DNA of 64,000 nucleotides from Owenia fusiformis (Eukaryota; Annelida; Polychaeta; Sabellida; Oweniidae): contig CAIIXF020000001.1 in assembly GCA_903813345.2 (NCBI GenBank), positions 2,418,001-2,482,000 of the forward strand, written 5' to 3'. How positions within the stretch are numbered: the stretch's first letter is position 1; the number at the start of each line of letters is the position of its first letter. Under the pieces are notes generated by a model, which saw nothing but the letters and a program-made list of their open reading frames with translations, did not search any database and was not told the DNA's origin. Positions 383 to 4,646 of this stretch are shown one piece after another. A program made the position numbers and the translations under genes.

Positions 383-3300
383 AGGCCATGCAGCCTACGG
401 GACTGCCGTAGACCTGAAAACAAATGACACCCAAATAAACAGCACAAATTCAAGTACAACTTCCATAGGAGCAACATATTTCATGACCTACCACAGTATA
501 CTGAAAAACTCAACAGACTATATAGAGGCATTGAAATATGCTAGGAAGATCTCAGATAACATAACAGCTAGTATATTAGCTGAAAGACACAACAATATTC
601 CTCCAGGGGAACCAGGCCATTATTCTAATATGAGTGTTACTGATAAAACATACAAGGTGTTTCCTTACAGGTGAGTACTTACTTTCTTACAATATACAGA
701 GTGGGCCAAAAATAACCACCCAAGAAAAACTTAGGGACTCAATTGTTTGTAGCTAATATTTAAGTAATATAGACAGAAGAGCCGGGGTGATATTGTCAAA
801 TACACCCCGCAGGCAGGGCTAGTCACAAACGTTTTCTGTACCCTAATGACCGAAGGGAGTGAGGTGTTCGAAAACTTTTGTGCCTAGCCCTAAGGGGTGT
901 ATTCGACAATATTACCCCTGATCTTAGGTCTATATTACGATTCGAACATGAAAACTCACCAAAATGTTTCGAATATTCATTATGGTTCCCAACTTCGACG
1001 ACCCGCTGTTATGACGTCACACATTACACGTATTACCAGGGGTATTCTTCGCGAATATACCCTGGGTGAAATGTTGACTTTGTTTACAGTTTATAGAAGG
1101 CGTGAATACAGTCATGTTCGAATGTTGTTTATATCATATCCCTGTCAGAATGCTCTTATTTGGTGCTTTGCTTAATGATCTTCAGAACTTTTTCGCTTGT
1201 AATTTCATGGGAGTTGAATAAGAGGGTCTACAAATGGGTTGGAACTGATTCCAACTGAGTTTCCTCTTGATTTGCTCTCATTTTAACATGATAAATAACC
1301 CAAATGTTCACAAAATAAATTAGTAACAGTCATGTTTTATAATGTGATATATTTAAATAATTTTTGTATTTTATTTCCAGTATCTTCTATGTATTCTATG
1401 AGCAGTACCTTACCATTGTACATGAGACCATAATCAACTTGAGTACATGTATTGGCTCCATCTTTGCCATCTCATTCATCTGCCTGGGCTTAGATAGGTA
1501 TTCAGCAATAATCATCACCTTTGTGATTGGTATGATACTGTTGTCTATGTTTGGCTTGATGTTCCTGTGGAATATCTCTCTGAATGCGATATCACTCGTC
1601 AACTTGGTCATGGTGAGTTGATGATGTTTATTTGTTAAACATTATATTAGAAATAGGATGTTATTCTTATATCGAAATTGATTTGAAAGCAGATTATTTA
1701 AAGTGGAATAAAGTTACTTGAAGATACGAAGTGTGATTTACAGAATTAAATCCTTTGCAAAGGGCTGTGCAAAAGTCAGTCCATCCCAGTGAACAGATAG
1801 TACTACAAATATCAAATATTGATGTTAGGACATAGGGTTTTCAAAGATATTGTAACAGTCTATATTATATTATGTCAAAACTGTACCAGGAATGATTTTA
1901 TTTTTTCAAATGCTATATATCTGTTTTTTGCAGTGTGTTGGTATATCAGTCGAGTTCTGTTCACATATAGTTCGAGCATTTGCGATCAGTGTGCATGAAA
2001 CACGAGTGCTTAGAGCTAAACATTCACTGGCTCACATGGGAAGTTCAGTAAGTACTACCTGATTCTTCTGTTCAATTATCAAATCCTGGCAAAAAAATTT
2101 CAAATCTTTTGACATGTTATCAAAATATCCAAGAGAGAAAACCAGATCATAAATAAGAATTCTTAATGGTTGTTACAAAGGTCAAAGTAAGGGAGAATAA
2201 GAATTCTTAATGGTTGTTACAAAGGTCAAAGTAAGGGAACATGAAACATTTATTGAATTCATAACTATACAAAGTTTCTGTTAAAACCGATATTTTTTTC
2301 AGGTGCTAAGTGGTATTACATTAACTAAACTAGGTGGTATAATTGTGCTTGGGTTCGCACATAGTCAACTCTTCAAAGTGTTTTACTTCCGAATGTACTT
2401 AGGAATTGTACTGTTTGGAGCTACGCATGGCCTTATATTCCTACCAGTATTATTAAGTTTCATAGGTGAGTTTTATAAATTATAATGTTATTGTTTTCCA
2501 GTTTGGCTTTCATAACGTGTATTTCAGTAATAGTAAGTGTACATTTGAATTAAAACTATTTCCCATAAGATTTACAATATGATAACAATATGTCTTTATC
2601 ACTATTATGTACATATATTTATATGATTTTAATAAATAAAAAAAAGATTGTGACATGAATTTCATGCTTTTGGGAGTAAAAGTAAAGTTTCTGTGATAGC
2701 AAACTAAACAACATTTGTCCATGTAGCTTCTAATTGCTTATAAGGTGCTAAGAACAGGCGTTGAGTACATGTGTTTGGTGATTGTACAAATGTACATAAC
2801 ATAACACATGGTACTGTCTGGATGTCTTTGAATATAGAATCAAAAACTTAATATCTGTAAATCTGTGTCCTCGATATGCTCCTAGTTGCTTCAGTTATTT
2901 TACTATTCTTTGTAGTGACACTAAATGATGTAATAATAGGCATAGCTAATTATGAGTGAACTGCCTCTCAAGCATATTTAGACTAAAACTGAAAATTATA
3001 TCCCACAGATCTATGATATTCTCTACTTTGACATTCATTTTGTCTTTTCTATTATTAAATTTTGCCTCACCTATTTTAGTTCTTTTGGTCGTTGGATACT
3101 GACTGACTGCGCTCTTGAACTGACTGCGCTCTTGAACTGACTGCGCTCTTGAACTGACTGCGCTCTTGAACTGACTGCGCTCTTGAACTGACTGCGCTCT
3201 TGAACTGACTGCGCTCTTGAACTGACTGCGCTCTTGAACTGACTGCGCTCTTGAACTGACTGCGCTCTTGAACTGACTGCGCTCTTGAACTGACTGCGCT

Positions 3301-4646
3301 CTTGAACTGACTGCGCTCTTGAACTGACTGCGCTCTTGAACTGACTGCGCTCTTGAACTGACTGCACTCTTGAACTGACTGCGCTCTTGAACTGACTACA
3401 CTCTTGAACTGACTGCGCTCTCGAATTGACTACGCTCTTGAACTGACTACACTCTTGAACTGACTGCGCTCTTGAACTGACTACATTCTTGAACTGACTG
3501 CGCTCTTGAACTGACTACACTCTTGAACTGACTAAGCTCCTGCTAAATGGATGCATGAACAATCGATGACCATGCTCTGACTGTGCATTATTTAGTTTTT
3601 CATCAATGTTCATTCTATTATGGAAATATGTTTGTTAAATGTTAGCCTTTAATATGCTGTTTGCTAATGCCTTGGTCACATTTGCTTCGATTTTCACTAC
3701 GGCGCCCAGCTGATTGAGTATTTTGTTCAAAATTGAATACAATATTGAGCAAAACACTCAATCAGCCAGGTGCCGGCCGATGGATCGGAGCAAATGTGAC
3801 CCAGGCATTAATGGGAGCCTTTATTATGTTGCAGGTCCTCCTATAAATAAAGCCAGATTGTATCAAGCCCAAAATAAATATTCCAGGCTAGAGTATGTCA
3901 TATATCGAGTTAACATCTGAATATCTGCATTTTTGTTTTCTGCTTAGTTCTGCATACCTTATATAACATGTATAATGTTGTGTTTGGATTTATGCACCAA
4001 ATGATGCTTTTAGGCACCAAATGCTGTTTTTCTCTTACTTGAACATTTGCCTTGATCTGTGACAAGTGGACTGTTTTGTAATTATCATTCAATTTTAATA
4101 TTAACTTTTACATTAATATTTATTCTTTGGTCACTTGGTAACTACTAATTGATACTAATTCAATGAGCCTGATAAAGGCAATGATGGGTATTACTAATTC
4201 TTTAATTAATAATGATGGGCATACATACATGTATTATTCTTTCCCTAATGTAGTGCAACTTTCTCCAGCATAAACCTGCAAGCTTTTCGACATCACATTC
4301 TCTGACTTGAACCTTCCATGTTAACATATTTATCTTCTGATCTGAATAAACGGTATGAATTATAGTTTAATACTAGTGTGTAGAAATCAAATGACTTTAA
4401 AAGAGATATGCGATTTTAAACAAAAACATAGGCTACAATAACATTAATATACGCTCTTCATATCAGAGCATATTTAATAATGCATTTTCTTTTCCACTTG
4501 CAGGGCCTCCGATTAACAAAGCAAGGCTATTTGAGGCTTATCAGAAAAATTCCAACAAACATAGAGTGTCGTCAACAGAAGAAAGAGAAGCCTTACTCAA
4601 GAGTGCTATCAACAGTGATAGTGCAAAAAGATATGAGGCTATATGA
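383..4646 (+). CDS. NPC1: NPC1 intracellular cholesterol transporter, C-terminal exons
   Basis: NPC1 is a multi-pass membrane protein of late endosomes and lysosomes that exports LDL-derived cholesterol. Five coding exons are visible: 383-670, 1381-1612, 1934-2047, 2303-2465 and 4504-4646. Each has GT-AG borders and the phases join. The translation follows human NPC1 closely from the GHAAY and [13 protein letters not shown] stretch, through [15 protein letters not shown], the [12 protein letters not shown] membrane segment, [21 protein letters not shown] and [11 protein letters not shown], to FYFRMYL and [19 protein letters not shown]. The last exon encodes a hydrophilic tail with TEEREALL, which aligns with the dileucine lysosomal signal ERERLLNF at the human C-terminus. 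The gene begins upstream of the window. The intron between 2465 and 4504 holds a minisatellite, a fold-back element and an alternative last exon. Confidence 0.96.
689..930. mobile_element. Small fold-back element
   Basis: The segments near 784-836 and 868-920 are inverted copies of each other (ggggtgatattgtcaaatac against gtattcgacaatattacccc), joined by a loop of about 30 bp. This is a non-autonomous hairpin element in an NPC1 intron. Just upstream (690-712) is TATACAGAGTGGGCCAAAA, which looks like one terminal repeat of a separate mariner-like remnant. Confidence 0.6.
2153..2236. repeat. 42-bp exact tandem duplication
   Basis: Two adjacent exact copies of a unit starting aataagaattcttaatgg lie in an NPC1 intron. 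This is a recent local duplication with no coding role. Confidence 0.85.
3098..3536. repeat. 17-bp minisatellite in NPC1 intron
   Basis: The unit ctgactgcgctcttgaa is repeated about 25 times. The first 15 or so copies are essentially identical; those after about 3360 differ by point changes (tacactc, tacattc). Because 17 is not a multiple of 3 but three units make 51 bp, an open frame with a 17-residue period appears on the minus strand. It is a by-product of the repeat, not a gene. Confidence 0.97.
3665..3810. mobile_element. Fold-back MITE beside the alternative NPC1 exon
   Basis: The ends taatgccttggtcacatttg and caaatgtgacccaggcatta are inverted copies. The similarity continues inward on both sides (ctgattgagtattttg against caaaacactcaatcag) almost to the centre. 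The element has no coding capacity. Its right end is 24 bp upstream of the alternative NPC1 exon, so it supplies the intron sequence just before that exon's acceptor. Confidence 0.85.
3835..3920 (+). CDS. NPC1: NPC1 candidate alternative terminal exon
   Basis: After a good acceptor (ttattatgttgcag) this segment reads in the phase left by the exon ending at 2465. It starts [13 protein letters not shown], nearly the same as [14 protein letters not shown] at the start of the regular last exon at 4504, and then diverges to end at TGA 3918-3920. It has no downstream donor, so it would serve as a separate last exon. The alternative tail is about 28 residues, lacks the acidic dileucine signal, and contains YSRL, which fits the tyrosine sorting pattern YxxPhi. 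An AATAAA lies inside it near 3845 and another near 4343. It could instead be a decaying duplicate of the last exon; the intact frame and splice site favour use. Confidence 0.62.

What the first reader, a model, noticed from the sequence alone, without database searches (positions are those of the whole stretch)
2303..4646. NPC1 has a second last exon that would change its sorting signal
Two segments, 3835-3920 and 4504-4646, follow good acceptors, fit the same phase, and both begin GPPINKAR before diverging to separate stops. The regular tail carries TEEREALL, at the place of the dileucine lysosomal signal of vertebrate NPC1. The alternative tail lacks it and has YSRL, a YxxPhi pattern. If both are spliced, one gene would make two NPC1 forms with different routing. 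The exons and motifs are seen; the routing effect is inferred from known sorting motifs.
Basis: partly seen in the sequence, partly recalled or inferred. Interest (0 to 1): 0.8.

Follow-up and report, generated by a model that had tools for sequence, protein, structure and literature searches.

The report
Second tail exon in animal NPC1
An animal cholesterol-transporter gene (NPC1) carries an old spare copy of its last exon that would remove the usual dileucine address label from the protein's tail; the spare exon looks long preserved as coding sequence, but its use in RNA and its effect on where the protein goes are not shown.

Summary
Segments 3835-3920 and 4504-4646 follow AG acceptors, fit the donor at 2465 in one phase and begin GPPINKAR. 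Likeness runs to 12 of 17 residues; the first 9 codons differ by 8 synonymous and 0 non-synonymous changes. So the spare exon is an old duplicate of the last exon, long kept as protein. A tandem NPC1 paralogue 36 kb upstream keeps it, open and with both splice sites; no other copy was found.

Three corrections. The exon probably ends at 3892, where both paralogues have a donor; joined to 4504 it gives ...KYSRLEASD*. And YxxPhi does not imply non-lysosomal routing: C. elegans NCR-1 (dileucine) and NCR-2 (YxxPhi) both overlap lysosomes (PMC11291935).

In the paralogue only the spare tail has either motif. A young hairpin element sits 24 bases before the spare exon, here only. I had no RNA and no other species. 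Use is likely; changed routing is open. A new variant of a known kind (compare LAMP2).

The parts
383..670 (+). NPC1 coding exon before the last transmembrane block
   Evidence: AG acceptor, CAG|GTGAGT donor; open frame shared with the tandem paralogue
1381..1612 (+). NPC1 coding exon
   Evidence: CCAG| acceptor, ATG|GTGAGT donor; paralogue match
1934..2047 (+). NPC1 coding exon [16 protein letters not shown]...; donor TCA|GTAAGT
   Evidence: match to NPC1 chains from residue 1162; splice sites
2303..2465 (+). penultimate NPC1 exon [12 protein letters not shown]...LLSFI; shared donor at 2465/2466
3102..3533 (+). 17-base tandem array (25.4 copies) in the last intron, mostly lacking in the paralogue
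3665..3810 (.). 146-base hairpin transposable element (MITE-like), inserted just before the spare exon in this gene only
   Evidence: inverted arms; relatives elsewhere at up to 96% (90 match rows, most places listed on both strands, 40 of 2,376 candidates scored); absent from the paralogue
3835..3892 (+). spare tail exon, 58 bases: (G)[18 protein letters not shown](E); donor AGA|GTATGT
   Evidence: homology to last exon; kept in paralogue with GTAAGT; splice scores
3893..3920 (+). extension of the spare exon if it is terminal: YVIYRVNI*
   Evidence: open frame here; in the paralogue the same frame stops at once
4504..4646 (+). regular last coding exon with TEEREALL (dileucine type) and a final YEAI

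Best explanation
The last exon of this NPC1 gene, which codes for the cytosolic tail after the last membrane helix, was duplicated in tandem long ago. The two copies are alternatives behind the same donor at 2465. The downstream copy (4504-4646) gives the usual tail with a dileucine-type signal (EREALL) and a final YEAI. The upstream copy (3835-3892) gives a shorter tail that keeps the membrane-proximal GPPINKARL, lacks the dileucine and carries YSRL 16 residues in. Most likely it is a 58-base exon with its own donor, joined on to 4504 in a shifted frame (tail ...KYSRLEASD*); it may instead be a terminal exon (...[14 protein letters not shown]). Because the stop lies in the last exon either way, it should not be a nonsense-decay switch. 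Expected effect: the NPC1 body is unchanged while the dileucine adaptor site is lost and only a tyrosine-type one, nearer the membrane, is left. That would change the path or speed of delivery (for example through the cell surface) more than the final lysosomal address. Shown: sequence, phase, homology, past coding constraint, retention in a paralogue. Inferred: splicing, adaptor binding, routing.
For: Spare versus regular exon: first 9 codons 9 of 9 residues equal, 8 synonymous and 0 non-synonymous differences; 17 codons 12 of 17 equal, 10 synonymous and 7 non-synonymous; simulation 90 of 200,000. The paralogue keeps the exon, open over the same 58 bases, with 4 substitutions, no indel, acceptor TTGCAG|G and donor GTAAGT. 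Against intron divergence of 18-21%, 4 or fewer changes in 58 has p 0.003-0.012. The exon duplication (synonymous sites saturated) is much older than the gene duplication (dS 0.19 over 253 codons). Between the paralogues the spare exon (2 synonymous, 2 non-synonymous in 19 codons) is no worse kept than the first 20 codons of the regular last exon (1 and 4). The acceptor scores 2.86, within the range of the five ordinary acceptors scored in the window (1.16 to 8.64); the donors (3.29 here, 6.12 in the paralogue) resemble the constitutive TCA|GTAAGT donor (4.78). Precedent for dileucine and YxxPhi tails in the NPC1 family: PMC11291935.
Against: No transcript was seen and only one genome was available. 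Conservation between the paralogues alone is weak: 79 of 1,865 windows of 58 bases elsewhere in the last intron, in two blocks, are at least as alike. The donor here is weak: 9 of 84 GTs in the intron, itself included, score as well; for the acceptor 4 of 61 AGs, itself included; the paralogue's acceptor scores only 1.21. Changes since the gene duplication are too few to prove present constraint. In the paralogue the two tails agree in only 8 of 17 residues, 6 of the first 9. A hairpin element has inserted 24 bases upstream. A single YxxPhi is expected by chance in 15-21% of such tails, and the regular tail has one as well. The 82-residue and 311-residue pieces given to Pfam had no match over a curated cut-off.
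Confidence: 0.55

Rival explanations
1. Relic: the exon was once an alternative tail but is no longer used here; the nearby hairpin element and the weak donor mark its decline.
For: Hairpin insertion 24 bases before the acceptor, with relatives at up to 96%; donor GTATGT scores 3.29 against 6.12 in the paralogue; paralogue has 2 of 19 residues changed, one in NKAR; the first nine residues of the paralogue's two tails agree in only 6 of 9.
Against: No indel or stop in the 58 bases in either paralogue, and both splice sites present in both, while the surrounding intron has many gap columns.
Confidence: 0.28
2. Real alternative exon used as a terminal exon ending at 3920 with its own poly(A) site in the intron, as the first reader proposed (a form of use, so it overlaps with the best explanation).
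For: The frame runs on to a stop at 3920 here; hexamers AATAAA lie at 3846, 3873 (inside the exon) and 4345 here, and ATTAAA/AATAAA at L037 7640/7666 in the paralogue.
Against: The 3893-3920 codons are not kept: the paralogue stops at once, in the TAA of its GTAAGT. By eye the downstream hexamers are not at matching places. A donor stands at the same position in both genes.
Confidence: 0.3
3. The alternative tail is made but its purpose is not sorting: it removes tail residues that bind partners or control stability, and YSRL is accidental.
For: Chance of one YxxPhi in a tail of this length is 15-21%; the regular tail has a YxxPhi too; the best conserved part is the membrane-proximal GPPINKARL, shared by both tails.
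Against: YSRL is identical in both paralogues (but these differ by only about 0.19 at silent sites), and a family member with a YxxPhi tail exists (PMC11291935).
Confidence: 0.2
4. Chance resemblance or assembly artefact.
For: Short match (17 codons).
Against: Present at two places in the genome, tblastn E 4e-4 in the window, exact phase and AG, pattern of synonymous change.
Confidence: 0.02

Closest known systems
LAMP2 with three alternative copies of exon 9 (A, B, C)
   Same: Lysosomal membrane protein with a shared luminal part and alternative last exons giving different cytosolic tails (PMC8956266, passages).
   Different: In LAMP2 the swapped exon includes the membrane span and expression is proven; here only the cytosolic tail of a polytopic sterol transporter is swapped and expression is unproven.
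C. elegans NCR-1 / NCR-2
   Same: NPC1 relatives with a dileucine-type and a YxxPhi-type tail signal (PMC11291935, section 15 read in full).
   Different: There two genes, both lysosome-associated; here two exons of one gene.
Vertebrate NPC1 / NPC1L1
   Same: Human NPC1 has a dileucine tail motif, LLNF (PMC11291935). NPC1L1 has a tyrosine-containing carboxyl-terminal motif YVNxxF that NUMB binds, recruiting AP2/clathrin (PMC10575946, passage).
   Different: Separate genes; YVNxxF is not YxxPhi; no membership claimed.

Membership tests
NPC1 (Niemann-Pick C1 transporter) | sequence match over the C-terminal membrane block to solved NPC1 | tested here: met
   NPC1 chains E 2.1e-43; NPC1L1 2.4e-29; Patched 4e-10
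NPC1 (Niemann-Pick C1 transporter) | dileucine-type signal in the tail | tested here: met
   EREALL fits [DE]xxxL[LI] in the regular tail, absent in the spare one
NPC1 (Niemann-Pick C1 transporter) | full-length protein with N-terminal sterol-binding domain | not tested
   upstream exon-like matches between the two gene copies were seen, and a Patched-family exon at C1:2406116, but the full protein was not assembled
Alternative last/tail exons by exon duplication (LAMP2-like) | two homologous exons behind one donor in the same phase | tested here: met
Alternative last/tail exons by exon duplication (LAMP2-like) | both exons found in transcripts | not testable with these tools
   no RNA data on hand
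Alternative last/tail exons by exon duplication (LAMP2-like) | spare exon kept in a second gene copy | tested here: met
   L037 7263-7320
YxxPhi sorting signal | motif present in the spare tail, in each reading | tested here: met
   YSRL in 4 of 4 spare-tail readings over the two paralogues
YxxPhi sorting signal | motif distinguishes the spare from the regular tail | tested here: not met
   the regular tail of the window gene has YEAI; only position differs
YxxPhi sorting signal | binds an adaptor mu subunit / directs sorting | not testable with these tools
   needs binding or localisation assay

The most novel reading that the evidence does not exclude
One NPC1 gene makes a lysosome-directed dileucine form and a form with a tyrosine signal alone by choosing between two ancient tail exons, doing within a gene what vertebrates (NPC1/NPC1L1) and nematodes (NCR-1/NCR-2) do with separate genes; the upstream paralogue, whose regular tail has lost both motifs, has specialised in the tyrosine form.
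Probability: 0.2. Interest if true: 0.75.

Novelty: new variant of a known kind. Interest (0 to 1): 0.5.

Why it matters
NPC1 controls export of cholesterol from lysosomes, and its tail signal helps to decide where that happens. A natural switch of the tail within one gene would allow a direct test of whether sterol transporters are sent to different membranes in different cells, and would show exon duplication doing the work of gene duplication. If the exon is a relic, it is still a dated case of an alternative tail being lost.

Tried and rejected
Cross-species comparison: not possible, since the genome tool states that this genome has no relatives on hand; I did not scan the bacterial or viral collections for it. 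A third tail exon: no place below E 0.1 in the window apart from the two described (whose printout was cut in the middle, so the part on the third NPC1-like gene was not seen). Third NPC1-like gene (C1:1749-1764 kb): its tail reads SWLGPGPYIINHGEVDNVEKDVEKDG; in about 10 kb behind it none of the 4 GP-starting candidates resembles either tail. RNA families: 0 hits at gathering threshold in the window; four weak miRNA hits at 3684-3793 lie in the hairpin element and were rejected. Poison-exon reading: rejected, because the stop after inclusion lies in the last exon. One search used a wrong start and showed stops; one search failed because a locus was looked for in the wrong file. A first long alignment misplaced two exons (49 of 114 and 70 of 163 identical; 25 of 2,979 intron windows as alike as the spare exon) and some exon ends were off by one; I replaced these with a 3'-part alignment and corrected ends. 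Splice-site frequency tables and amino-acid frequencies are recalled. On re-checking I found that the regular tail has a YxxPhi of its own; for that reason I lowered the best explanation from 0.6 to 0.55 and the novel case from 0.25 to 0.2, and raised the relic and non-sorting rivals a little.

Literature: of ten searches, those on NPC1 splicing or tails were (6 of 7, 15 of 97 and 7 of 7 papers listed) and, less directly, 24, 27, 31, 45 (15 of 38, none found, 12 of 123, 12 of 28); no listed title or abstract start reported alternative NPC1 tail exons. Only listings were seen, except the passages and the section cited; one further paper, PMC12350143 (passage), says that molluscan homologues of NPC1 and related proteins are scarcely studied. 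The library lacks most subscription journals. Searches were on other points, on a guessed species, neither supported nor refuted the guess, and I claim no species.
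Full report
Setting. The window is G000:C1:2418001-2482000 of an unnamed 498-Mb genome. Two preceding exons plus the regular tail match NPC1 chains of the PDB at E 2.1e-43, NPC1L1 at 2.4e-29 and Patched at 4e-10; Pfam gave no match over a cut-off for the two C-terminal pieces tried. Exons in the window are 383-670, 1381-1612, 1934-2047, 2303-2465 and 4504-4646, all with GT and AG at the introns. The match reaches GPSVNKAK of NPC1, which follows the last membrane helix (recalled). So the last exon codes for the cytosolic tail alone, and exchanging it exchanges the tail and nothing else.

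The observation. Likeness extends past [25 protein letters not shown] against [17 protein letters not shown], 12 of 17 residues. The DNA differs at 17 of 51 bases, 11 of them at third positions. In the first nine codons there are 8 synonymous and no non-synonymous differences. Placing 17 differences at random gave 12 or more equal residues in 90 of 200,000 trials. The pair was found through its protein likeness, so this figure is somewhat flattered. Still, silent sites are saturated while residues are kept, and this is the mark of two coding exons kept for long. A search of the window with both tails found no third place below E 0.1.

The paralogue. A second NPC1 gene lies upstream on the same strand, its last exon 36 kb away. 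It keeps the spare exon at L037 7263-7320: [19 protein letters not shown], 54 of 58 bases equal, no indel, the same TTGCAG|G acceptor, and a GTAAGT donor. The genome search with the spare tail found these two places only (the tool scores its best candidates). Synonymous divergence of the two genes is 0.19 over 253 codons, so the exon duplication is much older than the gene duplication. Conservation between paralogues is suggestive, not decisive: p is 0.003 or 0.012 depending on the intron segments used, but 79 of 1,865 other windows of the same length in the last intron are as well kept.

Where the spare exon ends. In the paralogue the same frame ends at once, within the TAA of GTAAGT, so the residues YVIYRVNI are not a kept feature. 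What both genes share is a donor right after base 58. Spliced to the regular last exon, this gives [23 protein letters not shown] here and [29 protein letters not shown] in the paralogue. I therefore favour a short exon joined to 4504 over a terminal exon, but not strongly: the donor here is weak (3.29; 9 of 84 GTs in the intron do as well, itself included), though close to a constitutive donor of the same gene (4.78). Stops lie in the last exon, so nonsense decay is not expected.

The motifs. All 4 readings of the spare tail over the two genes hold YSRL at residue 16 and no [DE]xxxL[LI]. The regular tail of the window gene holds EREALL at residue 27 and also YEAI at residue 44, its very end. 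So the spare tail does not bring a new class of motif: it removes the dileucine and puts a YxxPhi nearer the membrane. The regular tail of the paralogue has neither motif.

Results against. No transcript could be seen. Since the gene duplication the spare exon has 2 synonymous and 2 non-synonymous changes, which says little about the present. In the paralogue the two tails agree in only 8 of 17 residues, and the acceptor of its spare exon scores 1.21. A hairpin element of 146 bases, with relatives at up to 96% elsewhere in the genome, sits between 3665 and 3810, directly before the exon, in this gene only. It may have moved the branch point and weakened the exon (inference).

Routing. One YxxPhi is expected by chance in 15-21% of tails of 20-28 residues. 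A YxxPhi is also a lysosomal signal: NCR-1 ([DE]xxxL[LI]) and NCR-2 (YxxPhi) of C. elegans both overlap a lysosome marker, in neurons partly (PMC11291935, section 15 read in full). NPC1 is said to have a further signal in the sterol-sensing domain (PMC13080411, passage). On the other side, NPC1L1 uses a tyrosine-containing tail motif to leave the cell surface (PMC10575946, passage). A change in path or speed of delivery is plausible; a change in final address is not established.

Paralogue tail. In the upstream gene the ordinary last exon has a +1 insertion, so that in frame it reads ...KSVVNRFRRERSLTQKCYQH*. Its penultimate exon has diverged without silent-site bias (dN 0.215, dS 0.206), and it carries a 19-copy array made from part of a coding exon. 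It may be decaying, or may have specialised in the spare tail; I cannot tell.

Verdict. A real, old, duplicated tail exon of NPC1, of the LAMP2 exon 9 kind (PMC8956266, passages). Alternative NPC1 tail exons were not reported in the listings, which cover one open library and only part of the hits. Expression and sorting remain to be tested. Interest 0.5.

Noticed in passing
L039 4192-5918 (C1:2362192-2363918): In the upstream NPC1 paralogue, a 90-base tandem array of 19.3 copies made of an acceptor plus the first part of a coding exon (GGLTNMPAVKVF...), most copies followed by an in-frame stop; by eye only the last copy runs on into the full exon. Many decoy acceptors.
   Followed up: partly
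L037 8193-8341: Regular last exon of the paralogue has a +1 and a +6 insertion against the window gene; the dileucine stretch is out of frame and its in-frame tail has neither motif.
   Followed up: partly
window 4632-4646: The regular NPC1 tail ends in YEAI, a second possible sorting motif at the very C-terminus.
   Followed up: partly
window 3665-3810: 146-base hairpin (MITE-like) element with many relatives at 94-96% in the genome, inserted just before the spare exon.
   Followed up: yes
window 3102-3533: 17-base satellite ACTGACTGCGCTCTTGA, 25.4 copies, in the last intron.
   Followed up: no
window 2667-2777 and 4251-4342: Two further intron blocks unusually alike between the paralogues (windows of 54 or more of 58 bases, up to 58 of 58), not explained.
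   Followed up: no
L025 2814-7141 (minus strand): Retroelement-like open frames (by eye) lying between exons of the window's NPC1 gene.
   Followed up: no
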